Of a stretch of DNA of 64,000 bases, positions 1,268-49,562 are shown piece by piece. Each line of letters starts with the position of its first letter. Within the stretch, counting starts at the first letter, position 1. The notes under the pieces are model-generated. The model saw only the letters and a program-made list of their open reading frames with translations. It made no database searches and had not been told where the DNA came from. This DNA is from a virus. The stretch spans positions 1 to 64,000 of the IMG/VR virus record IMGVR_UViG_3300044522_000179. One strand, written 5' to 3'. The translations under genes and the position numbers were made by a program.

Positions 1268-1489
1268 TTACTGCTCCTTTATTTTAAATACTACCTGGCA
1301 AGGATCTCCGCCAGACTCCCACTCTTCTTGCTCTTCATCACTCATGTATGGATCTCCATCATGAGTATTACAGAAAGGCTCTGTTATCCATCCACGATCA
1401 ATTCCATTATTTAGCCAGATTTCAAATTCATCATAATCTAACTCATTCGCTTGAATACCTTTTAGGATCTCATCAAATTCTTCGCTCAT
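1268..1489 (-). CDS. Small acidic conserved phage protein
   Basis: 73 residues, strongly acidic. The core GWITEPFCNTHDGDPYM followed by a Glu-rich stretch and GGDPC is a small-protein signature I recall from many actinobacteriophages. Function is unknown. Two conserved Cys and a His could bind metal (inference). The ATG lies 6 nt downstream of a TATACT -10 hexamer and there is no Shine-Dalgarno sequence, so it is a leaderless candidate. The metallopeptidase gene starts directly after it. Confidence 0.8.
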   Translation of the reverse strand: MSEEFDEILKGIQANELDYDEFEIWLNNGIDRGWITEPFCNTHDGDPYMSDEEQEEWESGGDPCQVVFKIKEQ

Positions 1490-1495
1490 ATATAA

Positions 1496-1501
1496 AGTAT
1501 A
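1496..1501 (-). promoter_or_regulatory. -10 hexamer TATACT, leaderless start at 1489
   Basis: TATACT followed by six bases and then the ATG at 1489, with no ribosome-binding site between. The expected transcription start falls on or next to the A of ATG. No clear -35 element. Same geometry as the junctions at 13899, 24129, 41181 and 47509. Confidence 0.55.
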
Positions 1502-1559
1502 TCTCTAAATTCTGACAATGTCAAATGACTATCTAATAGTCTTGCTATCATTAAGATTA

Positions 1560-2402
1560 TCACTTATTTTTTTCTAAATATTTTTTATAAATAAAATCAG
1601 CCCAGTACTGATGAAATGGCTCCCCAATATGGTCATTGTCGTCTGCAAGGAATTTTGCATTATCGTTTTCATATAAGTATTTTTTAACAAAACTATTTAC
1701 ATCTGACAATTCATATTGATAGAATGTATTAAAATTATTTATTTTACTATTTTCTATTCCTAAATATTTTTCGTTTTCACAAGGTGCCCAAGAAAAAGAA
1801 TATAACTTTATACTATTGCTTTTGCAGTATAGGTCTAACATCAAGTAATACTGATACGCTAATAAATTTAAAACTTTATCATCTGTTCTAGTTAAAAATG
1901 AAAATTTAATAATATTTTTATTATTTATAGAATAAAATCTTGTAAAATCTGGCATATTTAAAAATATTACATCTGGATTTTTATATGTTTTACAATATTT
2001 AAAAATTAAAGAAATGCATTCCATTATTGAAGATCCACTAGAACCAATATTAAAATATCCAGATGTAGTGTTGTTTGTTTTTATTTGATCATACACAATC
2101 TTTGACCAAACTTTATCGTAAGGCATTCCATTCCCAAAGGTATAAGAACAACCTGAAAATAAAATATGCAATCCTTCATGGTCATTTTTAAAACTATCAG
2201 ATCTAAAATAATTTGAATTTAATTCATTTATATAAAAATTAGGATTTGTTTTTTTAAATAGTTCATCCCAATTGCTTATACTTAATGTTTTATTTCTTGC
2301 AATTGGAACATCTGAAAAAAAATATAAATCATTATCTGGGTCCGCATTTGTTATATCTGGGAACATAAAAGGACCCAAAAAAGATTCTTGAAAGTTATCC
2401 AT
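1560..2402 (-). CDS. SGNH/GDSL-hydrolase-like protein
   Basis: 280 residues. FSGCSYTFGNG at ~82-92 has the GxS(Y) shape of SGNH block I with a candidate nucleophile Ser. A following Gly-Ser-rich segment (NIGSSGSS, ~118-125) resembles block II. DNDHIGEPFH near residue ~260 supplies an Asp and His as in block V. The family includes esterases and acyl- or polysaccharide-modifying hydrolases; substrate here is unknown. No signal peptide. Codon use is very AT-rich compared with the capsid genes, suggesting a recent accessory acquisition. It lies between the HslV-like gene and the small acidic gene, behind an A-rich leader. Confidence 0.6.
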   Translation of the reverse strand: MDNFQESFLGPFMFPDITNADPDNDLYFFSDVPIARNKTLSISNWDELFKKTNPNFYINELNSNYFRSDSFKNDHEGLHILFSGCSYTFGNGMPYDKVWSKIVYDQIKTNNTTSGYFNIGSSGSSIMECISLIFKYCKTYKNPDVIFLNMPDFTRFYSINNKNIIKFSFLTRTDDKVLNLLAYQYYLMLDLYCKSNSIKLYSFSWAPCENEKYLGIENSKINNFNTFYQYELSDVNSFVKKYLYENDNAKFLADDNDHIGEPFHQYWADFIYKKYLEKNK

Positions 2403-2485
2403 TTAATAAATTAGCATTCTTTTTTTAATCTTTTTTTTATTTTTTTTTAATTGAATAATAATTTTTATTTTTTTAATTATTTTCT
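2403..2485 (-). other. A-tract-rich intergenic leader
   Basis: About 80 bases made almost entirely of A and T. On the coding strand it holds repeated runs of 5-9 A. No open frame. It could act as a curved or UP-element-like region, or as the 5' leader of the SGNH gene. A weak -10 (TGC-TAATTT) lies 5 nt before the ATG at 2402. Confidence 0.4.
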
Positions 2486-3010: not shown

Positions 3011-3042
3011 GGCAAAAGCCCTCTCCAGATAGGTTATACTCA

Positions 3043-3072
3043 AGTATACCATTGCCCAGAGAGGGCTGTCAA
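3043..3072 (-). promoter_or_regulatory. Promoter TTGACA-N18-TGG-TATACT for the HslV-like gene
   Basis: TTGACA (3067-3072) and TATACT (3043-3048) are separated by 18 bases, with an extended TGG before the -10. This is the only junction where I see a perfect -35. The leader is about 25 nt and contains the GGAGAGGG ribosome site. A short GC-rich inverted repeat (GCCC/GGGC) sits in the spacer. Confidence 0.7.
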
Positions 3073-3088
3073 GCAAGGTTAATAATGA

Positions 3089-13233: not shown

Positions 13234-13899
13234 TTAGTCTTTATATAACTCTTCATTTGCTTCAAGATTGTAAAATTGAGAAAGAAATCTTGTTCTTTCT
13301 GATAAAATCATATCTTGATCTTTATCAAGAGGTGTTGGATCTATGTATTCTAAATGACAAAAAATCATATCTATTTTGTTTCCAGGAAGAATTTTTGTAA
13401 TTTCCCTCCAATGCGTTTGCTGTGTTCCAGCAAAAACTAGTGCTTGATTGTCTTTTAAAAAATAACTTTTATCTTCTACAACAAGGCCCCAGTCTTGATC
13501 AGCGTGAACTTGAATATCAAACGTAATTCTTTGTTCATCTCTTAAGTCGCAATGTGGAAAAAGTTTACACTCATATCCGTAGGCTGGATCATACCTTGCA
13601 AACGAATAATCCCCAACTAATCTAACCTTGCCAGCAAGAGATGTCTTTTCTATAGCCTTGTTAATTTTGTCTTCAATTTCTGGAAGTTTTACATGCCAGG
13701 CTCTATGCCCAGCCCACTTTTGTAATTTTGTTTTGTCTTCTGGGGTATTATTTACAATGCTATAAATATAAGCAACATCTGCTTCATCAAAAATATCATC
13801 AACAATCATAACTTCAAAGTCTTGGTTAGAGACCTTTTCTTGAGATTTTACTAGGTTTTGATATTGATCGTAAGCCCTACCCTTAATTCCTTGTTCCAT
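13234..13899 (-). CDS. 2OG-Fe(II) oxygenase-like protein C
   Basis: 221 residues. LFPHCDLRDE supplies HxD, and AGTQQTHWRE the distal His and Arg, on a predicted double-stranded beta-helix (TFDIQVHADQDWGLVVE). First gene of the three-oxygenase cluster. Its ATG lies 6 nt after the -10 hexamer, with no ribosome site, so it is predicted to be translated from a leaderless mRNA. Confidence 0.68.
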   Translation of the reverse strand: MEQGIKGRAYDQYQNLVKSQEKVSNQDFEVMIVDDIFDEADVAYIYSIVNNTPEDKTKLQKWAGHRAWHVKLPEIEDKINKAIEKTSLAGKVRLVGDYSFARYDPAYGYECKLFPHCDLRDEQRITFDIQVHADQDWGLVVEDKSYFLKDNQALVFAGTQQTHWREITKILPGNKIDMIFCHLEYIDPTPLDKDQDMILSERTRFLSQFYNLEANEELYKD

Positions 13900-13901: not shown

Positions 13902-14192
13902 TTATATTATACCACTATCTGATATCTGTTCCAATATTGACATCTCTATTATTGCAAGCCTAACCTTTGCGTTTCCTTCGCCAATCACAACAACTATGGC
14001 AGGATCTTTTCCATTCTTCATTGCATCTGTTGTTGCCTTTGCCCAAACCTCTTTGTTTAATGTAAAAGACTTTCCAACTTCTTTAAAATCTACAACAAAG
14101 TTTCTCCAAGAGGCATCCCCCTTTTGAGTGTTACGACCAGAGTTCTTATGCTGCTTAGCCCCTATTCTTTTGGACTCACTCTTCTCTGTCAT
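13902..14192 (-). CDS. Putative PD-(D/E)XK-type resolvase/nuclease, Hjc-like
   Basis: 96 residues from ATG 14192 (a TTG lies 24 nt further up). The basic start RIGAKQHKNSGRNTQKGDAS, then FVVDFKEV (D-x-K) and SFTLNKEVWAK, resembles archaeal Hjc-like and phage Holliday-junction endonucleases, where KGD, DxK and SFSL form the active-site frame. Function is inferred. It overlaps the zinc-protein gene by 17 nt within the RecA operon. If correct, the phage has two unrelated resolvases. Confidence 0.5.
   Translation of the reverse strand: MTEKSESKRIGAKQHKNSGRNTQKGDASWRNFVVDFKEVGKSFTLNKEVWAKATTDAMKNGKDPAIVVVIGEGNAKVRLAIIEMSILEQISDSGII
13906..13914 (-). promoter_or_regulatory. Extended -10 TGG-TATAAT, leaderless start at 13899
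   Basis: TATAAT with TGG extension, six bases before the ATG. A TTGGAA sequence 17 bases upstream is a possible weak -35. The TAA of the upstream gene falls between the hexamer and the ATG. Confidence 0.7.
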
Positions 14193-19305: not shown

Positions 19306-20250
19306 TTAGTTTAGCATAGACTGTATTGATTTGTCAAACTGGAAGTCCAGTTCTTGAATTGACTTATCGTCCATATCGCCTATATCTTTATATTTTTTAT
19401 CTAGTTTAATTACGGATACACGAGAACCAAGTTTTTCAAGTATCTTAGTTTTCATATTTCCACCTGCTTCATCGTTATCCGCAATGACAATTATATCATT
19501 AAAGTACTTTTGAAGCAATTCTATTTGTATGTTTGATACATTGGATCCAAGTGTTGCTACTGCTGGAAAGCCACACTGGTCAAGCCTAATAGCATCAAAT
19601 GATGATTCCACTATGTAAACTTTGCCAGAACTTTTTACTCTATGCAGATTAAATAGTGTCTTAGATTTTGGCAACCCTGGAGTATTCTTAAACTCCTTGC
19701 CTTCAACAGACCTTCCAACAAAGCCAATTGGCAATCCATCTGGACTGTGTACTGGTACAGTTACCATGTCCTGTTTAACTGAGTAGCCCAAAGAAAACTT
19801 TGACCAAGAATCCATATTTATTTTTCTATATTTAAAATAGTTTTTTGCTCTATCGGAAACCAACAATCCATTATATAAACGCTTTAAGACTATCTCGTCA
19901 AATGAAATAAACTCTGGTTTTTTATATAAGGCTTTATCAACGTCTTGTTCAATACTTGTTTCTATTTCTTTGCTCTTGATAAATCTCGCAGCCTCAAAAT
20001 ATGTTCTATTGGACATATGCATAACAAACTCTGTTAATCCAGTAACATGATGACAGGCAAAACAGAAAAATGTACCACTTGATTTATCTATTTCCCCTGC
20101 TGGGGTTCTGTTATTATTGTGATAGGGACAAAAAATTATATAGTCTGAGTCAACCTCTGACTCAATTGTTACACCTGTTCCTGTAATAATTCTTTTGATT
20201 TGCTCTTTGCTATAAGAATTGGCTTGCTTGCGTCTATCCCTACTATCCAT
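19306..20250 (-). CDS. DnaG-type primase (zinc finger plus TOPRIM)
   Basis: 314 residues. CHC2-type zinc-binding site CPYH (41-44) and CFAC (63-66). The TOPRIM domain has VYIVESSFDAIRL (catalytic Glu) and VIADNDEAGGNM (DxD). Shorter than bacterial DnaG and lacking the C-terminal helicase-binding domain, like many phage primases. Lays RNA primers for the DnaE-type polymerase. The ATG at 20250 lies inside the upstream gene, giving an 82-nt out-of-frame overlap. Confidence 0.88.
   Translation of the reverse strand: MDSRDRRKQANSYSKEQIKRIITGTGVTIESEVDSDYIIFCPYHNNNRTPAGEIDKSSGTFFCFACHHVTGLTEFVMHMSNRTYFEAARFIKSKEIETSIEQDVDKALYKKPEFISFDEIVLKRLYNGLLVSDRAKNYFKYRKINMDSWSKFSLGYSVKQDMVTVPVHSPDGLPIGFVGRSVEGKEFKNTPGLPKSKTLFNLHRVKSSGKVYIVESSFDAIRLDQCGFPAVATLGSNVSNIQIELLQKYFNDIIVIADNDEAGGNMKTKILEKLGSRVSVIKLDKKYKDIGDMDDKSIQELDFQFDKSIQSMLN
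19308..19316 (-). promoter_or_regulatory. Extended -10 TGC-TAAACT before the SSB/polymerase/RecA operon
   Basis: TAAACT with TGC extension, overlapping the last codons of the primase gene, with a 32-base A-rich leader before the ATG at 19275. The hexamer is weaker than at the other junctions. Confidence 0.4.
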
Positions 20251-20495
20251 TTACTTTTTCTCTTTCCCGTGTATGTTCCGTATATTGTTATTTCAAAATT
20301 AAAATAGTTCTTTATCTCATTATAGTCTATAGTAAAATCTATGTTTATGTCAAGTCTTGGGACATACCCATTAAGACGCATTTCTGATACTAATAGCCTT
20401 TCATATTCTTCTCTTAATCGGACAATAGAGGATTCATCCTGAATGATGCCTTCAAGATTAAACCTTTTAATTGCTTTGTGGTGAAAGTTGTCCAT
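20169..20495 (-). CDS. Conserved hypothetical protein of the replication module
   Basis: 108 residues. Segments LDINIDFTIDYNEIKNYF and FEITIYGTYTGKRKSKWI suggest a small alpha/beta protein; no known motif. The last 27 codons overlap the primase gene in another frame. The ATG lies 5 nt after a TATAAT hexamer. Position between helicase and primase suggests an accessory replication factor (inference). Confidence 0.65.
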   Translation of the reverse strand: MDNFHHKAIKRFNLEGIIQDESSIVRLREEYERLLVSEMRLNGYVPRLDINIDFTIDYNEIKNYFNFEITIYGTYTGKRKSKWIVGIDASKPILIAKSKSKELLQEQV

Positions 20496-20500: not shown

Positions 20501-20506
20501 ATTATA
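20501..20506 (-). promoter_or_regulatory. -10 hexamer TATAAT, possible leaderless start at 20495
   Basis: Perfect TATAAT 5 bases before the ATG, in the 12-base gap after the helicase stop. No TGN extension and no ribosome site. Confidence 0.4.
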
Positions 20507-23549: not shown

Positions 23550-23686
23550 CTTCCCTCTTCATAATTTTGTGCTGGATTAAAGAATTTTCTATTTCCACAT
23601 GTAATACAATAAGTTTCCATATGGCTATTTTCACTAAATATCCTGTCAATGAACATTCGCCCTTTGCATCTATTACAGATAAGCAT
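23495..23686 (-). CDS. Small zinc-ribbon protein
   Basis: 63 residues. LICNRCKGRMF and YCITCGNRKFF form a CxxC...CxxC zinc ribbon of rubredoxin-like type. Starts in a TAATG overlap. Possible nucleic-acid binding; no specific function. Confidence 0.72.
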   Translation of the reverse strand: MLICNRCKGRMFIDRIFSENSHMETYCITCGNRKFFNPAQNYEEGRWLLKKEQLRAKATIASL

Positions 23687-24129
23687 TAATTTGGTATTCC
23701 AATAATTACCAAGTTAATACCAATGCTTGTGTCGCCTCCAGCATTAAACTTGACTGTACCCTCGACCTTTGAAGTTGAAATACTTTTTAGTGTGACTGTA
23801 ACATCCTTACCAGCATCCGTATTTCCAACGTTAACTGGTGTTGCTGTTACTACTGGTGCAAACTTAAACTCGCTTGGAAAATCATAAAAGAACGGCTGAG
23901 AAGATCCAGCAGTTTGTGTTGTGCTTGTTGTAACTTGAACATACCCTCCAATAATTCTTGCCTCAGATGCTTTGACGCTTTGTTTTCCAGCGTTGGGTGT
24001 GTCTATTGTTACATACTTGTAGGCTGATGGAGATACCTGAACAGAAAGATCATTAATAGCCTTAACAATCTGATAGATGTATGTTACGTCTAGTGGTTGA
24101 CCTCGTTCTGGTACGGGTAATATTGCCAT
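23686..24129 (-). CDS. Putative small tail or fibre-associated protein
   Basis: 147 residues, Thr/Val/Ser-rich and beta-stranded, with FFYDFPSEFKFAPVVTATPVNVGN and a C-terminal strand INLVIIGIPN, resembling receptor-tip or neck fibre modules that form small beta sandwiches. Lies at the end of the tail module but starts its own transcript. The ATG is 6 nt after a TGG-TATAAT element without ribosome site (leaderless candidate). Confidence 0.5.
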   Translation of the reverse strand: MAILPVPERGQPLDVTYIYQIVKAINDLSVQVSPSAYKYVTIDTPNAGKQSVKASEARIIGGYVQVTTSTTQTAGSSQPFFYDFPSEFKFAPVVTATPVNVGNTDAGKDVTVTLKSISTSKVEGTVKFNAGGDTSIGINLVIIGIPN

Positions 24130-24135: not shown

Positions 24136-24144
24136 ATTATACCA
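24136..24144 (-). promoter_or_regulatory. Extended -10 TGG-TATAAT, leaderless start at 24129
   Basis: TGG-TATAAT, then six bases, then ATG. The TAA stop of the preceding tail gene is embedded within the hexamer, an extreme compaction of stop, promoter and start. Confidence 0.7.
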
Positions 24145-30529: not shown

Positions 30530-31164
30530 TATACTTCTTCCAAAGTTATTGAGACGTTCCAGTAATCAAAGTTAGTTCCTCTTTTTTCAACAGAATATGA
30601 AAAATCACTAATAAACATTTCTATAAGTTGATTGTATTGCCCAAGGTGGTCGTATGGTTCTGATGTTCCCTTAAAAATTCCTTTTCTATCATATGCAAGA
30701 AATACCCAGAAAGATCCCTTATGTGAATCATACCACTCAAGCATATCTGCTCCACCTGCTCCGCCATCAGTTGTATAGGATACATATGGAGAGGCTCCAG
30801 TAACAGTATCAAAACTTGGAATGTTTGCATGGGATCTAGAAGGAATTAAATTCCAACTTGTACTTAGTGTTATTTTGTCTGCAATATGATATGATCTCAT
30901 GCGACCATTAATCATTCTTTCACGCTTTTCAATTCTTTCTTCTGAAAAATCAAGTGGCTGTCTATTATCATCAGTAATAAACAAGAATTGATCTAAAAGG
31001 GTTTGGTCTTCAACACTTTCTGGGTCTACTCCAACTTCATATCCGTAGGGGATGTACAAACCATCTTTAAGAGTGCCAGAGTTTTCAGACCACAGCATAC
31101 CGCTTGGTCTGTTGTATTTCTTACGACCCTGAACATAGGTGACTCTTGGATCAATTTCTGGCAT
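30529..31164 (-). CDS. Distal tail-type minor tail protein
   Basis: 211 residues. Starts inside the tape-measure 3' end (14-nt overlap), the standard place for the distal tail protein. Beta-rich segments: ITLSTSWNLIPSR, GSFWVFLAYDRKGIF and FDYWNVSITLEEV. Forms the ring joining tail tube and tip (inference from position). Confidence 0.6.
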   Translation of the reverse strand: MPEIDPRVTYVQGRKKYNRPSGMLWSENSGTLKDGLYIPYGYEVGVDPESVEDQTLLDQFLFITDDNRQPLDFSEERIEKRERMINGRMRSYHIADKITLSTSWNLIPSRSHANIPSFDTVTGASPYVSYTTDGGAGGADMLEWYDSHKGSFWVFLAYDRKGIFKGTSEPYDHLGQYNQLIEMFISDFSYSVEKRGTNFDYWNVSITLEEV

Positions 31165-37100: not shown

Positions 37101-40100
37101 TCTTTGTGCTCCATTGCTTTTTCAAGATCAAGCAATTGTGGGGCTGATAGCGGTGCTGCAACCTTTGTTTTCTTTGCTGCCTTTGTGCCTTGAGAAATTA
37201 CAGGGGTTGTTCCTGCTCCAAGTCTGTTCATATTAACTACTGTTCCTTCTGGAACTTGAACTCCATGGTATGTGCCTGCTGGAAGAGTTATAGTTGATGA
37301 TCCAGTTACTACTCTTTTTTTACTATTAACTCTTTCATCAATGCTGTAGTCTAAGATTAAACCTTGTCTTTTTGCCTCATCAAGAATTTTTCTACTTTCA
37401 TCAGGTGTAGTTCCTAATCCCTTACCCATATTAAATCTATAGTCTGTTGCATACAATCCTTGAGATTTTACATAGCCTGGGTCGTTTGGACTTATTATTT
37501 TTGGAATTTCTTTCTTATATAAATTGTCAACTATTGAATCATTTATAAATGGGCTTTTAGATTCTTGAATTGACTTTAAGAATGCATTATCTAGCGCTTG
37601 TGCCTGTACTGCAGACATTCCAGATGGAGACCATTTGCCTGCTCCACCCTTAATCCATTCATCTATAAACTGTTGCTTAGGTACTCCACCAGTTAGGCTA
37701 GGCATTGCTTTATTCATCCACTCAGGGAAGTTGAACATAAGACTGTGCTTTGTTGTTGTTACTGGTGGCAAACCTTGTGATATTAGAACCTGTTCCATAG
37801 TTATAAGTTTTAACTTTTGATCGGGAGACATATTAGGATTGCTCTTAATAATGTCTGATATTAGTCTTGGCTCGCTGCGTCCGCCTACGTGTGTTTCATT
37901 AATTGCAACTGATTTAGCATCTGTTGTTGCTGCTACTTCAGGAGCAAATGCTAATCCTTGAACTCTTCCGCCTGCAACCATGTGTGCAATGGCTGGTCTA
38001 TTTGCTGGATCCTGTGCTGATTGTTGAGGGATTACTGCTTCGCCAGGAGTTAGGTCTGCGTTTACGCTATCTTTATTTCCAGTTCCTGGAACGCTTGTTG
38101 TTCCTTTACCATATTTTTTAGGTGTAGGCAAGCGCTTTCCAGCACTGGGACCCGTAAATCCTATTTGTGCTGCAATGGCTCTTCTGTATGCATTTGCCAA
38201 CATGTTAACTGCTGCTGTTTCAGAAGTAAAAGTTTGTCTTAATCTTTGATGAACCTGATCAAGTGATGCTGCAACTGCTGATGCTTCTAACTGTTCTTTA
38301 GTTAAATAGTTTGTCTGCTCGCCTAATATTTGACTTGATTGGCCTGTTCTGTTGTACATAGATTTTAATCCTGCAAACATTTTAATTATGTTAGCAACAG
38401 CGTTTGCAATCAAACCAAATCCCATTAAAAGAACTGGTCCAACACCAGCAAGGGCAACTGTAAGAATAGTTAAGAATTTTTTAGTACCGTCTCCTAAGTT
38501 ATTAAACTTGTCAAGAATTTTTCCAACAAACTCAACAATAGGGGTTAATGCTTTTAAGAATTGTTCTCCTACTGGAGCAATAGCCAATTTTAAATCTTCC
38601 ATTGATTTTTTAAATTTGTATGTTGTTGTATTCTGAATTTTATCTAATTCTCGTTGTGACAAGATTGCAAGTTCTTCTGTAGTTGCTTTTGTTAATGATA
38701 AGACTCTCTGTGCTTGTGTACCCTGGGTTGTTACGTTTTGGAACAGTGTGGAAAGTCTTGAAAACTGGAACTTACCAAATAGTTGTTCAATAGCACGAGC
38801 ACGGTTAAGTGGGTCAAGAGTATCAAGTGCTTGTGCAAAACCAACAACAGTTGCTTTAATGTCTCCTTGGTTGGCTTCAACAATTCCTTTAATATTTACG
38901 CCAAGTTCTCCAAGAAACTTGCTTGCCTTTGTTGATGGATTAATTAAAGATGCAAGACCAGACTTAAGTGCGTTGGCGCCTTCGGATGCATTGATTCCAC
39001 CTTCTTTCATTGCTGTAAGGAAAAATGCTAAGTCTTCAACGTTTCCACCAAGTTGCTTAACAACTGGTCCAGCCTTTGGAATTGCTATTGTTAAATCTTC
39101 AATAGATACTACAGTCTGGTTTTCAACTGCGTTAAGGAAATCAATTTTGTTTGCAAGATCTTCTGCTGCAACGCCAAAAGCGTTAGTTACAGAAATTGTT
39201 GTCTCTAATGCCTGCGTTTGTTCTACTCCGCCAAGAACTGCAAGCCTTGTTGCCTGTACAACTTGTGCAACTAATTCTGCACCCATCTTGCCCATTGCTG
39301 CAGCATCTGCAGCCATTTTCATTGTGTCTTCTATTGCAACGCCATACTTAGTATATTCTGTTGCAAGTTTTTGAATTTGCTTAACCATTGCATCAGTTTC
39401 TGCTTGTGTTGTAAACATTTCTCCATACACACGCTTAAACCTAATTGCCTGCTCTTCAAGTTTCATAAATGTTTTTGAAGCAACTGTACCAAGCATTGCA
39501 AGTGGAACAGTAAAACCAACCATTAACTGACGTCCTGCCCACTGAGTATTCTTACCAAAGTTTAGGAGATTGGTTGATCCTTGTCTTAATAATTGATTAA
39601 GTAGTTGTTGTCTCTGTGCAGCGATGGCTGTTTGTGTACCCAGATTTTTCATATCAAGCGTTAGAGGTCTTACCGCAATTGCTTGTAGTGCTCCATTGGC
39701 ACCTCTGCCCATCTTTACATACTGGGTCTGTATATCTTTTACACGCTCTCGTGCAACTTTATTTAATGTTTCAAATTCAGATCTAAAGAATCTTCCAAAA
39801 GTTTTTGTTGCTGCTCCAGTATATCTAAAATATTCTCTAGATGTTAACTTGTTTCTTTCTAAAGCATTAGTAAAAGACTCTGTACTTGATGTTACTGTTC
39901 GCATAGATGCTTGGAATTTTCCAGTAGCATTTATGCTGTTCATCAAGTTCTGTGCTTGATTTGCTGCTACCGCTGAGGCTGCGGTACCAGACTTTGCCAT
40001 TTGTGTATGGAAGGCTGATATTTGACGTTGTAGAAGTTTTAGACTTGCTAAAGCATCAGACGTATCAATATTTACATGAATATTGGATTCTACATCAGCC

Positions 40101-40102
40101 AT
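31151..40102 (-). CDS. Tape measure protein with kinase-like insert
   Basis: 2983 residues. Residues ~150-520 carry the phage minor-tail/TP901-type tape-measure core (GGVEQTQALETTISV, FLTAMKEGGINASEGANAL). LTPGEAVIP near 690 and LTPGEFVMSKYAV near 2900 are typical tape-measure motifs. Several hydrophobic, glycine-zipper segments (~545-585, ~1500-1590, ~1770-1830) may form the membrane channel. Residues ~1030-1290 look like an inserted kinase-type fold: GIFTKPDGSKVFVKP (phosphate loop and Lys), a Glu in AEKRGTEIARAQGL, and GDKDLKKGNLGGNVV with VFD. Length predicts a tail of very roughly 400-450 nm if fully extended at 1.5 angstrom per residue, less if the insert is globular and outside. GAGGTG ribosome site. 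Confidence 0.93.
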   Translation of the reverse strand: MADVESNIHVNIDTSDALASLKLLQRQISAFHTQMAKSGTAASAVAANQAQNLMNSINATGKFQASMRTVTSSTESFTNALERNKLTSREYFRYTGAATKTFGRFFRSEFETLNKVARERVKDIQTQYVKMGRGANGALQAIAVRPLTLDMKNLGTQTAIAAQRQQLLNQLLRQGSTNLLNFGKNTQWAGRQLMVGFTVPLAMLGTVASKTFMKLEEQAIRFKRVYGEMFTTQAETDAMVKQIQKLATEYTKYGVAIEDTMKMAADAAAMGKMGAELVAQVVQATRLAVLGGVEQTQALETTISVTNAFGVAAEDLANKIDFLNAVENQTVVSIEDLTIAIPKAGPVVKQLGGNVEDLAFFLTAMKEGGINASEGANALKSGLASLINPSTKASKFLGELGVNIKGIVEANQGDIKATVVGFAQALDTLDPLNRARAIEQLFGKFQFSRLSTLFQNVTTQGTQAQRVLSLTKATTEELAILSQRELDKIQNTTTYKFKKSMEDLKLAIAPVGEQFLKALTPIVEFVGKILDKFNNLGDGTKKFLTILTVALAGVGPVLLMGFGLIANAVANIIKMFAGLKSMYNRTGQSSQILGEQTNYLTKEQLEASAVAASLDQVHQRLRQTFTSETAAVNMLANAYRRAIAAQIGFTGPSAGKRLPTPKKYGKGTTSVPGTGNKDSVNADLTPGEAVIPQQSAQDPANRPAIAHMVAGGRVQGLAFAPEVAATTDAKSVAINETHVGGRSEPRLISDIIKSNPNMSPDQKLKLITMEQVLISQGLPPVTTTKHSLMFNFPEWMNKAMPSLTGGVPKQQFIDEWIKGGAGKWSPSGMSAVQAQALDNAFLKSIQESKSPFINDSIVDNLYKKEIPKIISPNDPGYVKSQGLYATDYRFNMGKGLGTTPDESRKILDEAKRQGLILDYSIDERVNSKKRVVTGSSTITLPAGTYHGVQVPEGTVVNMNRLGAGTTPVISQGTKAAKKTKVAAPLSAPQLLDLEKAMEHKEKLRAVAIEASQTAFGAKKPTNFGVQETQSSGRSNFMSTIGGIFTKPDGSKVFVKPMLSELDAIAEKRGTEIARAQGLLAPRQTIKTMIDPTDIDEPDVKKKRKIIVLESPYDSRFDPNTMPKTFTEKEYIKQTVAAALRGDKDLKKGNLGGNVVADVGAAGVFDTASGKRAYSSGLPSMEAIAMHNFKGVTGPNANGSPFWFGNATADIPQNIQSADEYERKIKEEINRTLPKLRKTIDGFKLKTGDPAKKVYEDMYKRLQAGLNADWKKVYNFHRSILVKPDEVLEDKKGNLKPIPTKPNNGKLKSDSGSIKDTRLAPASVASSVRQGPKGRIVGKANAPGSKNATVNAILAGVKGSVAKAKAAGATIGKTISQSAAASSRTALYGTGSIDADAKSLRRQMEKRQRAEAKTQAKMAASRTKLYGMGPMDADAKSMRRQMERRTKLANSVAYQKRIISERAAAQFTPAPSVSGTPMGPSMANGKFETTKLQRLKNNRQNAKVAGKGGMGIAGGVGMAAGAAMIGSMVPGKVGEISQKLMMPLMGLSMIIPMLKSPASALAVGLLATVGSFAALRMSFDKAADQVLEEGEKFKGSTSALQTIAKFGGKTTASEQMDLRRKNSFAMLGPATGKTTYGEAYAQTAEGKALTARISKQNAEGKGNVAVKDLGGQLSAAIMSGAMDMSQAKSLAMNAARQAGDMSIGIKVIAQLESLLGPNGENLVNDPLNVRINMVNANATNMKTSADNVKNAGVLQQLAGQKVTQGLGIGASALGGAAAGAGIGTALGPAGTLAGAIIGAGIGTAVGAIGGYFASKKYAKEAAVLGATYAVDAKIAMEQNKQMLDSLDMYYQKKIEELRLQGKINEALELEKEYLGDKEKGKVGKRDQLTAAQAKMQGDIVSQYNSAGGLQEAMMSGMKKATTAKYKNDPNQLAYIDTVNQQSKNLRKDGLIDSGQEFLIQAKMASGDIPPAVFRTLLQMATDNKDIAPKMMNIITKFSGATSESIGVAAQNILNAKGDINKTVQTKFITKVEAFEKDSDALDFTKNMIKLNNLNTVIPSDFMVSFYVDPKNKTAYEELNRVLDAIETQKPKTIDAVYNIMPQLKGTANFDEAYFKTLTDDQKLVYTTTIASIINIPEPQIEASEDYKAWLKEPAPHGGAGVSGSISYKIQKYREAQGYKAVTDNTSVGTKAPTGTTPNGDGNKVQSSPLDDLVKKLRDVRMNQIKVTEGWGASRKALDKLFGGNKTISVFSGIENDLRGLGTSQDFIELIVGMDPKVYEQKKNSLFKFDNKGNIVALKEDAKNIQEALNSITMGDWKSSMEADLKAIENQSTAFNKLANLGVPVAEAYQLVTDAGIAEAIANGVSNKNLETLINNYKRLTKEKEKYAAISGVKTDIAQFKKNTIQEGRLRSKYGAEDAFAISSDENLKLMESQLEAKEAQVKRLQTIGAPPAVIMAALGELSELVELFNTRLNQLKSTVEFMQGLFDKGFGNAMQAFDVQETALNIQFKIDTKSQNAIIKEAQNTIAAIQYEIDDKEAALKGIEDQEQKINDKYDERIKALDEVEKLNSSISNQQKGQLTLAEALTSGDISAAARAVQDMRAQAAADAVTKQKDAIEKSREYELSRVKTQGGKTRLDLEKEIKDLQDKIFKIEEDKLEPAQEFIRLRQIVLDKDIEGLTVLGLTKDAWEAIKNQVDLALIKSAAFVDSMKLALEIQAKLIAAYQAQPGNTSSNSAAQGPSPIISKPYVPDPEASPEANKEAEDAHKAAADAEAEANAALSEATAAALAAAAAIAELESQSAEIGKVAAGISALAIRKATNTTSLNKAVALAEGNLSPESIAINMSRALLSSKTMTKSLGGTAGALSTARYTGQAMKSMGLSAGGMVPKMFAAGGFAKGTDTVPAMLTPGEFVMSKYAVDSYGVDHMKKMNNGDLNSGAVYNNTYTLTVNAKTNANPNEIAQAVMSTIKQVDDRRIRGVSLNARN

Positions 40103-40470: not shown

Positions 40471-40479
40471 AGTATACCA
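40471..40479 (-). promoter_or_regulatory. Extended -10 TGG-TATACT before the short chaperone and tape measure
   Basis: TATACT with TGG extension 26 bases before the ATG at 40444, followed by an AAGGAGG ribosome site. Lies in the 56-base gap between the two chaperone genes, so they can be expressed at different levels. Confidence 0.6.
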
Positions 40480-40500: not shown

Positions 40501-41181
40501 CTATTCGTAAACCTCATAATCAAGGCCCATGCCAATACCAAACCCTGCTCTTTCAGCATTTACTCCTTGTAGGGCCAGAATATCATTTCCATTTCCTGTT
40601 GCACCCTTGCTAAACACTCTAGCCTTCATATCTTCCCATTCATTACCGCTACCAGAATTTTTGTCTAAATCTACTCCCTGCATAGCAGCAGCAAACTTTT
40701 TATCACTGTAGTCTAATTCTCTTTTTATCTTTAGTGTGGCTGTTAGTTCTTGCATAGACATTGATGACTCTAATTGATCATAGTCTTTCCATATACCGAT
40801 TAAAAAAACCTCTGACTCTAGTTTTGCTAAGTCTAAGGTTTCCCATGTTGATCCACTGTCAACTGCCTGATTTTTAACAGTGTCTTCTGACTTCTCGTTA
40901 ATTTTGATTCCTGCTGCAACATCAATAACATCATAGATAGTTGGTAAGTCTAGGCTATCTTCTAAGTCTTCAATAGTTTTAATTGATGGGCAATATTGTT
41001 GCATTGCAATAAGAGCGCATTGAGCCAAAATAGATATTGATTCATCATCACTTTTTGCTTCTTTAATTTTTTCAAATGTTTCTAAAAATTCTCTTAGGTA
41101 TTTTATTTTTAATGGGGCAGCAACAATAACTCTATCATCTACTAGTGATATTTTCTTTGTATCATATATTTTTGTTGCCAT
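40501..41181 (-). CDS. Tail-assembly chaperone, long form (fused GT-type)
   Basis: 226 residues from ATG 41181. The first ~105 residues (LKIKYLREFLETFEKI, SLDLPTIYDVIDVAAGIKI) are homologous to the short chaperone. The C-terminal part has LAKLESEVFLIGIWKDYDQLE and KKFAAAMQGVDLD, the hallmark of the T extension usually added by -1 frameshifting. Here it is one continuous frame. The ATG lies 6 nt after TGG-TATACT with no ribosome site (leaderless candidate). Confidence 0.82.
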   Translation of the reverse strand: MATKIYDTKKISLVDDRVIVAAPLKIKYLREFLETFEKIKEAKSDDESISILAQCALIAMQQYCPSIKTIEDLEDSLDLPTIYDVIDVAAGIKINEKSEDTVKNQAVDSGSTWETLDLAKLESEVFLIGIWKDYDQLESSMSMQELTATLKIKRELDYSDKKFAAAMQGVDLDKNSGSGNEWEDMKARVFSKGATGNGNDILALQGVNAERAGFGIGMGLDYEVYE

Positions 41182-41187: not shown

Positions 41188-41196
41188 AGTATACCA
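41188..41196 (-). promoter_or_regulatory. Extended -10 TGG-TATACT, leaderless start at 41181
   Basis: Six bases separate the hexamer from the ATG. The element begins directly after the T-rich tail of the terminator at 41197-41229. Confidence 0.7.
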
Positions 41197-41229
41197 AACA
41201 GAAAGGCCCAACCCCGAAGGATTGAGCCT
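41197..41229 (-). terminator. Intrinsic terminator after the major tail protein gene
   Basis: Eleven-base stem (AGGCTCAATCC with GGGTTGGGCCT, two G-T pairs) capped by a TTCG tetraloop, followed by TTTCTGTT. It begins 17 bases after the stop at 41246. Confidence 0.85.
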
Positions 41230-41245
41230 CTCATATTAAGTTGTA

Positions 41246-44945: not shown

Positions 44946-44954
44946 ATTATATCA
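44946..44954 (-). promoter_or_regulatory. Extended -10 TGA-TATAAT for the neck operon
   Basis: Perfect TATAAT with TGA extension, 18 bases before the ATG at 44927 and 12 bases after the terminator hairpin. Confidence 0.65.
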
Positions 44955-46183: not shown

Positions 46184-46753
46184 TCATTTGAATAGATCGG
46201 CTGTTTTGAGGAAACTACCGCCCCATAGGGATTTTTCAACCATTTCAGGTTGAGACTGAAAGATATCGCCGATATCTCCAGACTTTCGGAATGCGGTTTC
46301 TGCTTCCACAGCGTCTACTCGTTTTCCAAATTCATTAAACTCACCTGAAACTGCTGCAATATCTTTTGCAACTGCTTCGAATGAATCTTTTACTGTGTCA
46401 ATGTCTACCTTTGAAGACTTAAGAAGTTCTACTTCTGCTTGCAAAGACTTTACTGTTGACACTAGATCGCTAAAGGCTGATTCTAGAGTATTTTTCATTT
46501 CAGTAACTGCATCTGCAATTACCTCTTCTGACTTAGATACTTCTACAACTGCTTCAACTACTGTTTCGACTGCTTCAGCATCTTCTGCCTTAACAATCTC
46601 TTCTGCTACAACATCATCAGTTTTAGCAACTTCTGTTGCTTCAACCTCTTCTGCCTTAGCAATTTCTTCAGTAACTTCTACAACTGCCTCTGGAGCGACC
46701 ACAACATCTTCAATTACGTCTGTCTTTTCAACTTGTGTTTTTGATTTTGTCAT
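46184..46753 (-). CDS. Nested scaffold protein from internal in-frame start
   Basis: Within the protease gene, ATG 46753 (residue 254) is preceded by a full AAGGAGGT with 7-nt spacing, as good as any ribosome site in the window, at the exact border between protease and coiled-coil parts. The product, MTKSKTQVEKTD... of 189 residues, would be an assembly scaffold, as with lambda C/Nu3. Sequence evidence is direct; expression is inferred. Confidence 0.72.
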   Translation of the reverse strand: MTKSKTQVEKTDVIEDVVVAPEAVVEVTEEIAKAEEVEATEVAKTDDVVAEEIVKAEDAEAVETVVEAVVEVSKSEEVIADAVTEMKNTLESAFSDLVSTVKSLQAEVELLKSSKVDIDTVKDSFEAVAKDIAAVSGEFNEFGKRVDAVEAETAFRKSGDIGDIFQSQPEMVEKSLWGGSFLKTADLFK

Positions 46754-47512
46754 AGGTTGTACCTCCTTGTTAATCTTAGAAGTATTAATGCCTTTAGCAC
46801 TATCAACTAAGAATTTTATCATGTCTGTTTTTTCATTATCCGTTTTTTCAACGAAACCTATATTTGCCATTTGCTCACCAGTAGTTGGACTTAACTCTGA
46901 TTCATTTTCTGAAACCATAACAATGCCTGATTCCTTGTCATAAAAAACATTTTCTAAAACTGTTTCGTCACCCTTAACAACATCTACTCCGTCAACTTTT
47001 TCAACAGATACAATGTTTGCAAACTGATTTGCTGGGGAATCTACAAGACTCAACTCAATCAAATCGTATTGCTTAATAATTCTAATTGCTTTGTCTGATT
47101 TCTCGTCAAACCCATCGTCCCATTTGTTCATACGTCCACCAATAGAAAAACCAGTTAGTGTTCCATCTAGAACCTTTTCCCAAGTATCTTGTGCACCCTT
47201 TGAAACATATGCTGATACGAATACACCGTTATAAAACTTCTTTGAGTCTGGATCAAAATATTTATCTGCTTTGAATGAAACCATCTTGCCTACTGCTAGT
47301 GGCTGATGCATTTCTCTGATGTTCCCTCGGAATTTTGCAAAGGCATCCATTGATGCTTCTGCTGTTACAATGTCATCTTGCTTATCGACATTGTCTAAAG
47401 ATGCAAAACCAGAAACGACTCTACGCTCTTTGTCCACTTTGGTAAGGGGCATAGAAAGACGAAGATTATTCCCATCAGTATTCCAATGGGCTTTGGATAT
47501 ATTGCTCACCAT
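46184..47512 (-). CDS. Prohead protease fused to scaffold domain
   Basis: 442 residues. The N-terminal ~1-190 is an HK97-type (S78/U35) prohead protease: VVSGFASLDNVDKQDDIV, EMHQPLAVGKM (His69), TLTGFSIGGRM (Ser123) and LIELSLVDSPAN. Residues ~255-442 are an acidic Glu/Val-rich, coiled-coil scaffold (TEMKNTLESAFSDLVSTVKSL). Start: ATG 47512 lies only 3 nt after the -10 hexamer, while the next codon GTG (47509) lies 6 nt after it, as at other leaderless genes. An internal start at 46753 yields the scaffold alone. Confidence 0.88.
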   Translation of the reverse strand: MVSNISKAHWNTDGNNLRLSMPLTKVDKERRVVSGFASLDNVDKQDDIVTAEASMDAFAKFRGNIREMHQPLAVGKMVSFKADKYFDPDSKKFYNGVFVSAYVSKGAQDTWEKVLDGTLTGFSIGGRMNKWDDGFDEKSDKAIRIIKQYDLIELSLVDSPANQFANIVSVEKVDGVDVVKGDETVLENVFYDKESGIVMVSENESELSPTTGEQMANIGFVEKTDNEKTDMIKFLVDSAKGINTSKINKEVQPMTKSKTQVEKTDVIEDVVVAPEAVVEVTEEIAKAEEVEATEVAKTDDVVAEEIVKAEDAEAVETVVEAVVEVSKSEEVIADAVTEMKNTLESAFSDLVSTVKSLQAEVELLKSSKVDIDTVKDSFEAVAKDIAAVSGEFNEFGKRVDAVEAETAFRKSGDIGDIFQSQPEMVEKSLWGGSFLKTADLFK

Positions 47513-47515
47513 TAT

Positions 47516-47521
47516 ATTATA
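47516..47521 (-). promoter_or_regulatory. -10 hexamer TATAAT before protease gene, GTG leaderless start
   Basis: TATAAT, six bases, then GTG at 47509 (ATG 3 bases after the hexamer is too close for transcription from a normal start). Preceded by GCG, not TGN. In the 52-base gap after the portal. Confidence 0.55.
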
Positions 47522-47564
47522 CGCCCTTTTTTACACATATATCACAATATGGACATATGGGACA

Positions 47565-49157
47565 TTAAGGAGTTTTTCTTCCCTCTCCTTTTGGGGCTCT
47601 TCCAGCAACTGTTGAAGTGCTGTCTGAATTATTATTTGTTCTTGCAGAGTCTCTGGCTCTTGTAGTTGTTGCTTCTGCTGCTGCAGTTGCTTTAAGATCT
47701 AAGACCTCGTCGCCACCTTCTCTTTGTGGCATATCCAAAAGAACTCTTGCCTCGTTTGGAGTCATAATTTGATTCTTAACATATCTTTCAAGAATTTGAG
47801 ACTGTGCAATTTCATCTGTTAAGGTTAATTCATTAAAAACAAACTCAAGAATATCGGTTTTTTCACGGACAATCTTGTTGATCATTTTTTCAATTTGTCT
47901 TTGTGCTGGTCTTGCTACCTGCTCTTTAAAGGTGCGATCCTGTGCAAGTGCTGCTGCAATAGATCCAGAATCGCCACCTCCAAGTTTAGACAATGGAACT
48001 TGATGTGCTACCAGAATGTCATCACGGTTTTGTTTACGATACTCTTTAAAGGAGCCATCTTGTATACCGTCTTCAATGGGATCCATTTTAAACTCTACCT
48101 TATTGTTTTCGCTATCTCCTGGTAATGGAATATATAGAGTTCTATGTGACTGCCCTCTGAGATTTGTCTGTAAGAATCTAAACATCTTATCTTCTGCGTC
48201 TCCAGAAAGTTTTGCACCCTTTAGGGTTACAACGTATCTTGGTACTGCTTTATTTGCAAAGTAATCAATATTGTATTGTGAAGCAAGTGAGTCTCCATGC
48301 AATGAGTTAATTGCCGACATAATGTCTGGCACTCCATAGAATGTGTTAAGAGGCGAGTACTGCTTAAAGTGAATAATTTCATTTGGTCTAGCATCTGTAG
48401 TTAGTGGATTCTGATTTTTTGCTCCAAAGTTACGGAAGTAAACAATCTTGTTTCCAATAATCTGAACATAGCCATCTTTGATTCTTCTAACTCTCATTGT
48501 TGTTGATGGGATATGTCCAACATATCCAATCTCTCCACGAGTAGTTCTTCCTATTTCTAAGTATCCGTTTCCAGTTGACTGTAGGTCTGTGTAAACTTTT
48601 TCCATTGTTGCTGTAAATGAATCGTCATCGTTAAGAGACTCTATCCAATCACGCATTTCAATTTTTGCTCGTTCAATTCTTTTTCTTGCTTTTTGCGTTG
48701 CGCTATTATCTTCTGATGATTCAAGTCTCATCATTGTTCTTTGAGAAACCTTAAACTCATAACCTAGACCAACGATGTTCTCTACCTTAGCATCAATGGC
48801 TGCGTGGTTTGCAAAAGATGTGTCGTAATAGTTTGCCAACTCATACAAGTTCCATGGTGGGGTGATTACATCAAACATTCCATAGCCGTTTATATATACT
48901 AGTCCTGGGTTTATTTCTTTTGATTGTGCTCCATCAATACCGCTTTTTCCAGCAAGTGCTGCAGTTGTGTATTGAGTTGTTGGTTCAACCATCTTTGTTG
49001 AAGATCTGCTTATACGTCTTTTAAAGTTTGCTTCTAGTCCGTCAAGAGATTTTAATGAATCCCAATTTCCGTTAAATGGATCTGACTTTGAAAAAGTATC
49101 ATCTTTCTTTATTGATTCATCAATCCTTGCACTAATCTCATAATCGTTGTCTTCCAT
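47565..49157 (-). CDS. Portal protein
   Basis: 530 residues. PBSX/HK97-like portal features: ELANYYDTSFANHAAIDAKV, FTATMEKVYTDLQSTGNGYLEIGR, IHFKQYSPLNTFYGVPDI, DYFANKAVPRYVVTLKG, LVAHQVPLSKLGGGDSGSIA. Ser/Thr/Arg-rich C-terminal tail (~485-530) is probably disordered. Forms the dodecameric DNA gate. Confidence 0.9.
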   Translation of the reverse strand: MEDNDYEISARIDESIKKDDTFSKSDPFNGNWDSLKSLDGLEANFKRRISRSSTKMVEPTTQYTTAALAGKSGIDGAQSKEINPGLVYINGYGMFDVITPPWNLYELANYYDTSFANHAAIDAKVENIVGLGYEFKVSQRTMMRLESSEDNSATQKARKRIERAKIEMRDWIESLNDDDSFTATMEKVYTDLQSTGNGYLEIGRTTRGEIGYVGHIPSTTMRVRRIKDGYVQIIGNKIVYFRNFGAKNQNPLTTDARPNEIIHFKQYSPLNTFYGVPDIMSAINSLHGDSLASQYNIDYFANKAVPRYVVTLKGAKLSGDAEDKMFRFLQTNLRGQSHRTLYIPLPGDSENNKVEFKMDPIEDGIQDGSFKEYRKQNRDDILVAHQVPLSKLGGGDSGSIAAALAQDRTFKEQVARPAQRQIEKMINKIVREKTDILEFVFNELTLTDEIAQSQILERYVKNQIMTPNEARVLLDMPQREGGDEVLDLKATAAAEATTTRARDSARTNNNSDSTSTVAGRAPKGEGRKTP

Positions 49158-49159
49158 AA

Positions 49160-49546
49160 TTATTCCTCATCCCCATACTTAGCAATTGTATCTTTTGCTG
49201 CTTGTACTGCTCCAAGGTCGTTTAGGTTTGGTATAAGTCCAGACTTCATACGATCAACTTGCTCAGAATATTCTTCTTCTGAAACTCTTGTTAGCCCTGG
49301 AACAAATACGCATGTACCATCTCCTGGATCTCCGTAATGCATTGCAGTCTTTTTTAGTTCTGCCATTCTAGTAAAGTCGTTTTTATCTGAAGGTATATTG
49401 AGTACAGAACCGTTTCCATCTGTAAACCATTTACCATTTGCTTTCTTATACACATAAAGGCCCCAGTCATAGTTCTTTTCAATGACCTGACGTCTAACGT
49501 TTTTTACAATTGGTTGACCAGTTTTTGGGTCTATAAGGGAATCCAT
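49160..49546 (-). CDS. Conserved hypothetical protein before the portal
   Basis: 128 residues. NYDWGLYVYKKANGKWFTDGNG and AMHYGDPGDGTCVFVPGL are the most distinctive segments. Found by position beside portals in related actinophages as far as I recall; function unknown. The ATG is 7 nt after TGG-TATACT with no ribosome site (leaderless candidate), so it starts the portal transcript. Confidence 0.65.
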   Translation of the reverse strand: MDSLIDPKTGQPIVKNVRRQVIEKNYDWGLYVYKKANGKWFTDGNGSVLNIPSDKNDFTRMAELKKTAMHYGDPGDGTCVFVPGLTRVSEEEYSEQVDRMKSGLIPNLNDLGAVQAAKDTIAKYGDEE

Positions 49547-49553
49547 AACTACA

Positions 49554-49562
49554 AGTATACCA
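49554..49562 (-). promoter_or_regulatory. Extended -10 TGG-TATACT, leaderless start at 49546
   Basis: Seven bases separate the hexamer from ATG. Lies in the 18-base gap after the LamG gene stop. Confidence 0.65.

What the first reader, a model, noticed from the sequence alone, without database searches (positions are those of the whole stretch)
1489..49562. A family of leaderless genes with a fixed -10-to-start distance
At 1489, 13899, 24129, 41181 and 47509 the -10 hexamer (TATACT or TATAAT) ends exactly 6 nt before the start codon; at 49546 it is 7 and at 20495 it is 5. None of these genes has a ribosome site, while most other genes do. At 47509 the rule predicts a GTG start one codon after the obvious ATG. 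In two cases the hexamer overlaps the stop of the previous gene. Leaderless mRNAs are common in Actinobacteria; a dedicated, repeated arrangement in a phage opening most of its operons would be a regulatory layer of its own.
Basis: partly seen in the sequence, partly recalled or inferred. Interest (0 to 1): 0.75.

Follow-up and report, generated by a model that had tools for sequence, protein, structure and literature searches.

The report
Leaderless genes in an actinobacterial phage
A large phage that probably infects aquatic Actinobacteria places the core promoter box exactly where RNA synthesis should begin at the start codon, so many of its messages probably carry no leader; this mode of expression is already known from Actinobacteria and some phages, but here it is unusually well conserved and can be tested in laboratory phages.

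Summary
All seven hexamers lie where stated. TATAMT sits 5-7 nt before an [AG]TG start 7 times in the window against 0.23 expected. In ten phage records (own plus nine relatives) it sits 6 nt away 130 times and 7 nt away 32 times, against about 2 each for permuted hexamers. Phages T5 and SPBc2 show 1 and 0 at gap 6. Distances are kept across relatives, e.g. 51 of 51 distinct sequences at 49546 and 21 of 21 at 1489. A -10 box at -12 to -7 makes the start codon +1, so this is what leaderless transcription from an ordinary host sigma-A-type promoter gives. The GTG start at 47509 is supported (79 of 79 loci; 49 of 54 in a wider set). A new, well-documented member of a known kind. No RNA 5' ends were available.

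The parts
1496..1501 (-). -10 box TATACT of the leaderless promoter of gene 1268-1489 (gap 6), with TTGACA 17 nt upstream
   Evidence: gap 6 in 21 of 21 distinct relatives
1268..1489 (-). leaderless gene, 73 aa, unknown function
   Evidence: no Pfam or PHROG match
13906..13911 (-). -10 box TATAAT (TGG-extended) of leaderless gene 13234-13899, gap 6; the upstream ORF ends inside the spacer
   Evidence: same family has a gap 6-7 start in 7 of 10 records
13234..13899 (-). leaderless gene, 221 aa; weak PHROG match to phage 'ferrochelatase' families
20501..20506 (-). -10 box TATAAT of gene 20169-20495, gap 5, 1 nt after the stop codon of the DnaB-like helicase gene
   Evidence: 63 distinct relatives: gap 5 in 53, 7 in 9, 6 in 1
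20169..20495 (-). leaderless gene, 108 aa (phrog_17515, unknown function), directly after the helicase gene, as in Yaboi
24136..24141 (-). -10 box TATAAT (TGG-extended) overlapping the stop codon of the upstream gene, gap 6
   Evidence: 83 distinct relatives: gap 6 in 61, 9 in 15, 5 in 4, 8 in 2, one SD-led (L152)
23686..24129 (-). leaderless gene, 147 aa, unknown function, near tail genes
41201..41232 (-). intrinsic-terminator-like hairpin (14 pairs) seven bases upstream of the 41181 hexamer
   Evidence: longest stem of the 10 found there; the number of hits in that region is not above shuffles (10 against 9.3)
41188..41193 (-). -10 box TATACT (TGG-extended) of leaderless gene 40501-41181, gap 6
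   Evidence: gap 6 in 17 of 21 distinct hits; the other four (36-42% identity) are SD-led and three of them carry an upstream region like that of the neighbouring gene 40444
40501..41181 (-). leaderless gene, 226 aa, next to the tail-assembly-chaperone-like gene (named by gene order); shares phrog_10504 with it
47516..47521 (-). -10 box TATAAT of the head maturation protease gene, 6 nt before the GTG at 47509
   Evidence: TATAAT N6 GTG in 79 of 79 loci (48 distinct); 49 of 54 in the wider set
46184..47509 (-). head maturation protease gene, probable start GTG at 47509 rather than ATG at 47512
49554..49559 (-). -10 box TATACT (TGG-extended) of leaderless gene 49160-49546, gap 7
   Evidence: gap 7 in 51 of 51 distinct relatives; TATAAT-like box 6 or 7 nt before a start in 12 of 12 Streptomyces and Rhodococcus phage orthologues looked at (of 135 matching records), one after moving the annotated start
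49160..49546 (-). leaderless gene, 128 aa, directly upstream of the portal gene (phrog_9394, unknown function)
53288..53293 (-). TAAAAT with TG extension, 9 nt before the ATG at 53278: possible 3-nt-leader promoter of gene 49565-53278
   Evidence: three relatives (L076, L084, L086) have a GGAG motif between a TATAAT or TAAAAT box and the ATG
40471..40476 (-). comparison: leadered promoter, -10 box 26 nt before the start at 40444, with AAGGAGG
44946..44951 (-). comparison: leadered promoter, -10 box 18 nt before the start at 44927, with AAGGAGG

Best explanation
These are ordinary host sigma-A-type promoters (extended -10, TGN-TATAMT, sometimes with TTGACA 17 nt upstream) placed so that transcription begins at, or within a base or two of, the start codon. 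The -10 box occupies -12 to -7, so a 6-nt gap makes the A or G of the start codon +1; a gap of 5 or 7 reflects normal slack in start-site choice. The mRNA has no leader and is translated by the actinobacterial host's leaderless route, which needs an AUG or GUG at the 5' end. Other operons use the same promoter type with a short leader and a Shine-Dalgarno site. Shown here: positions, enrichment, conservation, lack of SD in six of the seven window genes, start-codon bias, and SD-led forms with the promoter kept in a few relatives. Inferred: the 5' ends, use of the host polymerase, translation by the leaderless route, and the host itself.
For: Gap histogram in ten phage records (1.10 Mb): 130 at gap 6 and 32 at gap 7 against 2.3 and 2.2 for 78 permuted hexamers. 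At gap 6, TATAAT scores 96 and TATACT 34; the best control hexamer scores 8. The 162 starts fall into 56 gene families, 13 of them in at least 5 of 10 records. Per-gene spacing is conserved in relatives. TG extension is enriched, and 0 of 318 SD-led starts carry TATAMT at gap 5-7. TTG makes 2 of 164 leaderless starts against 24 of 338 SD-led starts, P 0.004. A terminator-like hairpin lies directly upstream of the 41181 promoter. Some relatives keep the promoter but carry an SD between it and the ATG: L152 at 24129 and L084/L086 (identical upstreams) at 53278; L076 is a similar case. WhiB occurs in 10 of 11 records and sigma-70 region 2 in 0 of 11. The 49546 orthologue is leaderless-like in all 12 Streptomyces and Rhodococcus phage genes looked at. 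Controls T5 and SPBc2 show 1 and 0 at gap 6, or 4 and 0 with 14 looser hexamers; Yaboi 4 (10), Francesca 2 (5). Published rule: TANNNT around 12 bp upstream marks leaderless genes in bacteria, above all Actinobacteria (PMC3160421, passages).
Against: There are no RNA 5' ends. The host genome could not be examined, so leaderless translation in this particular host is inferred from its phylum. 47509 has a purine tract that could act as a weak ribosome site for read-through mRNA (-4.7 kcal/mol); SD-like words precede the hexamer in 42 of 45 distinct upstreams of that gene and in 12 of 20 of 1489. Gap 9 is a minor mode (18 against 2.2), and gaps 0, 1 and 5 are also raised (13, 13 and 9 against about 3.4), part of the gap-0 cases being second in-frame ATGs of gap-6 or gap-9 genes. 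In the protease, five of 54 distinct relatives lack the GTG. Several genes could also be read through from upstream promoters. The 20495 site has neither TG extension nor a clear -35 element (absent from the filtered list) and a short gap of 5.
Confidence: 0.9

Rival explanations
1. A dedicated phage regulon: a phage-specific sigma factor or translation factor recognises the TATAMT-N6-start arrangement and switches this gene set as a unit.
For: The arrangement is repeated and conserved: 13 of 56 families carry it in at least 5 of 10 records. Phage phiYS40 of Thermus is reported to alter IF2 and IF3 to favour its leaderless messages (PMC3594737, passages).
Against: The same TGN-TATAMT core drives leadered genes. 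No sigma-70 region 2, IF2 or IF3 family was found in 11 records. Leaderless genes are found on both strands and most have no known function, with no obvious class.
Confidence: 0.06
2. The hexamer is not a promoter but an AT-rich translation-enhancing element or a by-product of AT-rich, unstructured start regions.
For: The phages are AT-rich (36-38% GC) and start regions are often AT-rich (general knowledge).
Against: 78 permuted hexamers show no comparable peak. TG and TTGACA elements sit at promoter distances. The hexamer is present where an SD leader is used instead (L152, L084, L086). Control phages T5 (39% GC) and SPBc2 (35% GC) lack the peak.
Confidence: 0.02
3. Mixed use: the promoters are real but secondary, and most protein comes from read-through mRNA translated by coupling or weak ribosome sites.
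For: Stop-to-start distances are only 2-18 nt at 13899, 20495, 24129 and 49546; 47509 and many relatives of 1489 have SD-like words before the hexamer.
Against: Six of seven window genes lack a usable SD, the 41181 gene is preceded by a terminator-like hairpin, and the spacing is kept.
Confidence: 0.1

Closest known systems
Leaderless (TA-led) genes of Actinobacteria and Deinococcus-Thermus (PMC3160421; PMC12340547; passages read)
   Same: TANNNT or TATAAT about 12 bp before the start, no SD; in Deinococcus the -10 motif next to the ORF was validated experimentally as the promoter, with a spacing requirement.
   Different: Those are cellular genes; here phage genes, with a tight hexamer (TATAMT, as searched) and frequent TG extension.
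Predicted leaderless promoters PL1, PR2 and PL2 of Cluster O mycobacteriophages (PMC4351075; passages read)
   Same: SigA-like promoters of an actinophage with +1 on the first base of the start codon.
   Different: Three such promoters described there; here 9-24 gap 6-7 starts per record in 56 families, with conservation across many relatives.
Thermus phage phiYS40 leaderless mRNAs (review PMC3594737; passages read)
   Same: A phage with leaderless messages in a host able to translate them.
   Different: There, changed IF2/IF3 levels are reported; here no phage-encoded IF2 or IF3 was found, and host factor levels cannot be seen from sequence.
Stanwilliamsviridae (Streptomyces phages Yaboi, Coruscant, Jay2Jay and others) and Rhodococcus phages Francesca, Dorin, Trina, Weasels2
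   Same: Shared gene order around portal, protease and capsid, about 47% identity in portal, and leaderless-type boxes at the 49546 orthologue.
   Different: About 47-48% GC (Yaboi, Francesca), hexamers less uniform (TATGAT, TACAAT), identity below 60% in the proteins compared; at the annotated start the 20495 orthologue is not leaderless-like in Yaboi or Francesca.

Membership tests
Leaderless genes of the actinobacterial (TA-led) type | -10-like TANNNT about 10-12 bp upstream of the start codon, enriched over chance | tested here: met
   130 at gap 6 against 2.3; 7 against 0.23 in the window
Leaderless genes of the actinobacterial (TA-led) type | no Shine-Dalgarno site before the start | tested here: met
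   median -2.8 kcal/mol over 162 starts, near internal ATGs (-2.1); exceptions: 15% of the 162 at or below -5, 47509 at -4.7, and SD-like words in relatives of 1489 and 47509
Leaderless genes of the actinobacterial (TA-led) type | start codon ATG or GTG | tested here: met
   157 ATG, 5 GTG, 2 TTG at gap 6-7 (ATT 10 and ATA 6 were also counted there)
Leaderless genes of the actinobacterial (TA-led) type | mRNA 5' end at the start codon | not testable with these tools
   no RNA data
Leaderless genes of the actinobacterial (TA-led) type | host of a lineage with leaderless translation (Actinobacteria) | tested here: inconclusive
   WhiB in 10 of 11 records and actinophage relatives indicate Actinobacteria; the host itself was not identified
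phiYS40-like phage control of leaderless translation | phage-encoded IF2 or IF3, as one possible means of favouring leaderless mRNA | tested here: not met
   0 of 11 records; changes in host factor levels not testable
Dedicated phage sigma-factor regulon | phage-encoded sigma-70-type factor | tested here: not met
   0 of 11 records; records may be incomplete and other factor types were not tested
Dedicated phage sigma-factor regulon | promoter motif distinct from that of other phage operons | tested here: not met
   both classes have the TGN-TATAMT core (TG in 54% and 73%)
Stanwilliamsviridae | shared core genes and gene order (RNR, portal, maturation protease, capsid, tail genes, DnaB-like helicase, DnaE-like polymerase) | tested here: inconclusive
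   similar order and about 47-54% identity in portal, protease (part) and polymerase, but no family-level tree was built

The most novel reading that the evidence does not exclude
The phage family keeps a largely fixed division of its operons into leaderless and SD-led classes on one promoter type, and uses it as a translational control during infection: changes in host ribosome or initiation-factor state would shift output between regulatory or assembly genes (leaderless) and the major virion proteins (SD-led).
Probability: 0.12. Interest if true: 0.65.

Novelty: new member of a known kind. Interest (0 to 1): 0.4.

Why it matters
It gives a sequence-only, family-wide case that actinophages use leaderless genes on a large scale, with spacing kept for the same gene (49546) in aquatic, Streptomyces and Rhodococcus phages. 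It suggests corrected start codons (GTG at 47509; Streptomyces phage MindFlayer gene 46 is probably annotated two codons too long), gives natural examples of leaderless and SD-led forms of one gene with the promoter kept, and makes predictions that can be tested in existing Streptomyces phages.

Tried and rejected
Host identification through genome contigs with the phage ribonucleotide reductase gave only a distant Sericytochromatia hit (L088) and a 3.2-kb phage-like contig binned in a Chitinophagaceae MAG (L089), so no host genome could be scanned. A phage sigma factor, IF3 and IF2 were sought and not found. A near-identity DNA match of window 31151-40102 to named phages gave nothing. WhiB gene upstream regions in nine records showed no clear -10 box at gap 6, so not every conserved gene is leaderless. 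The automatic search for gene 20495 put the start in the wrong place in relatives with N-terminal extensions; it was redone by in-frame start search. Four of 21 hits for gene 41181 (L309, L310, L311, L325; 36-42% identity) are SD-led; three have upstream regions like that of the neighbouring chaperone-like gene, so they are probably paralogues; they are counted as misses. A first count of 7 leaderless of 13 promoters used a filter that had left out one leadered box (41953) and 20495; the unfiltered recount is 7 of 14 within 40 nt, with one more box at 57 nt. Paper searches listed no paper on leaderless genes in Stanwilliamsviridae or freshwater actinophages; most subscription papers and preprints are not held. 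Rows dropped before counts: identical upstream sequences collapsed in 'distinct' counts; hits starting after residue 4, short alignments, hits with under 60 nt upstream; L001-L006, L087 and L088 left out, L089 kept (321 loci). Gene sets come from a simple ORF caller, not from annotation; T5, SPBc2 and Yaboi were scanned over 100 kb each and Francesca over 50 kb, not whole.
Full report
What was claimed.

Check of the sites. All seven are present on the minus strand at the stated places and distances. In the window, TATAMT lies 5-7 nt before an in-frame [AG]TG near the start of an ORF 7 times; the expectation from 78 permuted hexamers is 0.23. In the window six of the seven have negligible anti-SD pairing (-0.5 to -2.9 kcal/mol); 47509 has a purine tract (-4.7). 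Leadered neighbours such as 40444 and 44927 reach -10.8 and -10.9. In relatives an SD-like four-base word lies just before the hexamer in 12 of 20 distinct upstreams of 1489 and 42 of 45 of 47509, but in 0 of 48 at 49546 and 1 of 81 at 24129.

What the phage is. The window is part of a 76,896-base IMG/VR record. Its portal, protease (58% covered) and polymerase are about 47-54% identical to those of Streptomyces phages, and gene order around portal, protease, capsid, tail and helicase resembles Streptomyces phage Yaboi (Stanwilliamsviridae) and Rhodococcus phage Francesca. WhiB, described as found exclusively in Actinobacteriota and suggested as an actinophage indicator (PMC10202952, first part of the text read), is found in 10 of 11 records examined; the exception is the partial own record. 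An actinobacterial host is therefore likely. The low GC (36-38%) would suit freshwater Actinobacteria, but the host was not identified.

Family-wide test. Four scans of viral contigs gave 320 related loci (80 each, the cap). In these the spacing is kept gene by gene (distinct sequences): 1489, gap 6 in 21 of 21; 49546, gap 7 in 51 of 51; 47509, gap 6 to GTG in 48 of 48; 41181, gap 6 in 17 of 21 (the other four are SD-led, probably paralogues); 20495, gap 5 in 53, 7 in 9 and 6 in 1 of 63; 24129, gap 6 in 61, 9 in 15, 5 in 4, 8 in 2 and SD-led in 1 of 83. Gene 13899 had only one, identical, hit in that set, but its family has a gap 6-7 start in 7 of the 10 long records. Leadered genes are also constant: 40444 at gap 24-28 in 21 of 21, 44927 at 18-19 in 10 of 10, and 56431 at 33-37 in 25 of 26, with an SD-like word in 95%, 100% and 100%.

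Ten long records. For nine relatives of 100-119 kb plus the own record (1.10 Mb), the histogram of TATAMT to [AG]TG distances has a sharp peak: 130 at gap 6 and 32 at gap 7, against 2.3 and 2.2 for controls. Smaller excesses lie at gaps 0 and 1 (13 each), 5 (9) and 9 (18); gaps 10-16 are low (2-9), and a broad leadered distribution follows from about 17 nt. At gap 6 TATAAT gives 96, TATACT 34 and the best permuted hexamer 8. The 162 starts (9-24 per record) fall into 56 gene families, 13 present in at least 5 records and 28 in one. None of 318 SD-led starts has TATAMT at gap 5-7. TTG is rare at leaderless starts (2 of 164) but not at SD-led ones (24 of 338; P 0.004). In 44 family representatives the base before the start is T in 55%, fitting a purine +1. 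Phages T5 and SPBc2, of similar GC but with E. coli and Bacillus hosts, show 1 and 0 at gap 6 (with 14 looser hexamers 4 and 0), Yaboi 4 (10) and Francesca 2 (5).

Mechanism. A -10 box conventionally lies at -12 to -7. A 6-nt gap to the start codon therefore puts +1 on its first base; 5 and 7 are ordinary variation. The promoters are TG-extended in 54% of 152 distinct leaderless sites and 73% of 125 distinct SD-led sites, against 393 of 2506 for all TATAMT, so both classes look like one host sigma-A-type promoter. Some also carry TTGACA at 17 nt (1489). A terminator-like hairpin ends seven bases before the 41181 hexamer, which would mark an operon boundary there.

Start at 47509. GTG is kept in 79 of 79 loci (48 distinct sequences) while the ATG just before it is changed to ATA or ATC in 7 of 79; six of those seven have another ATG three bases further upstream. 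GTG is only 6.7% of valine codons in these phages. Neighbouring codons are also well conserved, so this supports but does not prove GTG as the start. In a wider set GTG is kept in 49 of 54 distinct sequences. Of the other five, G007, G009 and G010 (70-78% identity) have an ATG 9-10 nt after TATAAT, G006 (42%) an ATG 9 nt after TATAAT, and G008 (41%) no TATAMT box there.

Exceptions and switches. Gap 9 is a minor mode (18 against 2.2), with a purine as the seventh base after the hexamer in 16 of 18, suggesting 3-nt leaders; one of the 18 also has an ATG at gap 6 and several have one at gap 0. Gene 53278 has TAAAAT at gap 9 in most relatives. In L152 (gene 24129) the hexamer is followed by an AAAGGAGG leader, in L084 and L086 (gene 53278, identical upstreams) by AGGAGG; L076 has TATAAT with AGGAG. 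The promoter is kept while the translation route differs; the direction of change was not worked out. PMC3160421 reports that initiation mechanisms change between genes of common origin (abstract passage).

Depth of conservation. The orthologue of 49546 was looked at in eight Streptomyces and four Rhodococcus phages, of 135 matching records. All 12 have a TATAAT-like box (TATAAT, TATGAT or TACAAT) 6 or 7 nt before a start codon: seven at 6, four at 7, and MindFlayer at 6 if the start is moved two codons downstream of the annotated one. The 12 are not independent (Dorin and Francesca, for instance, are alike). Yaboi has further TATAAT cases at gap 6 (genes 47, 54, 64). At its annotated start the 20495 orthologue is not leaderless-like in Yaboi or Francesca, so the state is not fixed for every gene.

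Against a separate regulatory layer. In the window 7 leaderless and 7 leadered starts lie within 40 nt of a TATAMT box, one more at 57 nt. No sigma-70 region 2, IF2 or IF3 was found in 11 records, although records may be incomplete. No clear functional class separates leaderless genes, most of which are unknown. The genes that gene order marks as major capsid and major tail protein have strong internal SD sites by inspection, which would fit a split between high-output SD-led and other genes, but this was not measured. In Mycobacterium tuberculosis leaderless and leadered transcripts showed no systematic difference in protein per mRNA, though the same authors discuss a model in which leaderless ones are translated less efficiently (PMC7148126, passages).

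Known precedents. Leaderless genes exceed 20% of genes in Actinobacteria and Deinococcus-Thermus (PMC3160421, passages). A -10 motif adjacent to the ORF was validated experimentally in Deinococcus, with a spacing requirement (PMC12340547, passages). Cluster O mycobacteriophages have three predicted leaderless promoters (PMC4351075, passages). Phage phiYS40 is reported to favour its leaderless mRNA through IF2 and IF3 (PMC3594737, passages). The finding is therefore a well-supported new member of a known kind. What appears new within the papers searched is the scale, the gene-by-gene conservation and the natural switches.

Noticed in passing
L087 (own record, 64597-64980, 70650-71102, 72662-73057, minus strand): Three genes matching phrog_1084 each have their own leaderless-type promoter, as do relatives in other records: a paralogous family whose members each carry such a promoter.
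   Followed up: partly
L089: A 3.2-kb contig binned in a Chitinophagaceae MAG encodes a stretch (140 residues) 84% identical to this phage's ribonucleotide reductase: probably phage contamination of the bin.
   Followed up: no
L396 (Streptomyces phage MindFlayer, gene 46): The annotated ATG directly abuts TATGAT; the next in-frame ATG, 6 nt on, matches the start of the orthologues, so the annotation is probably two codons too long.
   Followed up: partly
window 3043-3072, minus strand: A TTGACA-N18-TATACT (TG-extended) promoter-like site with no assigned start close by in my gene list.
   Followed up: no
ten records, gap 9 sites; window 53288-53293: A minor mode of -10 boxes 9 nt before the start, mostly with a purine at the expected +1: probable 3-nt leaders.
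   Followed up: partly
window 47522-47532, minus strand: A conserved purine-rich tract (GGGG or GGAGG in relatives) directly before the TATAAT of the protease gene, and a similar AGGAG before the hexamer in many relatives of 1489; role unclear, possibly a weak ribosome site on read-through mRNA.
   Followed up: partly
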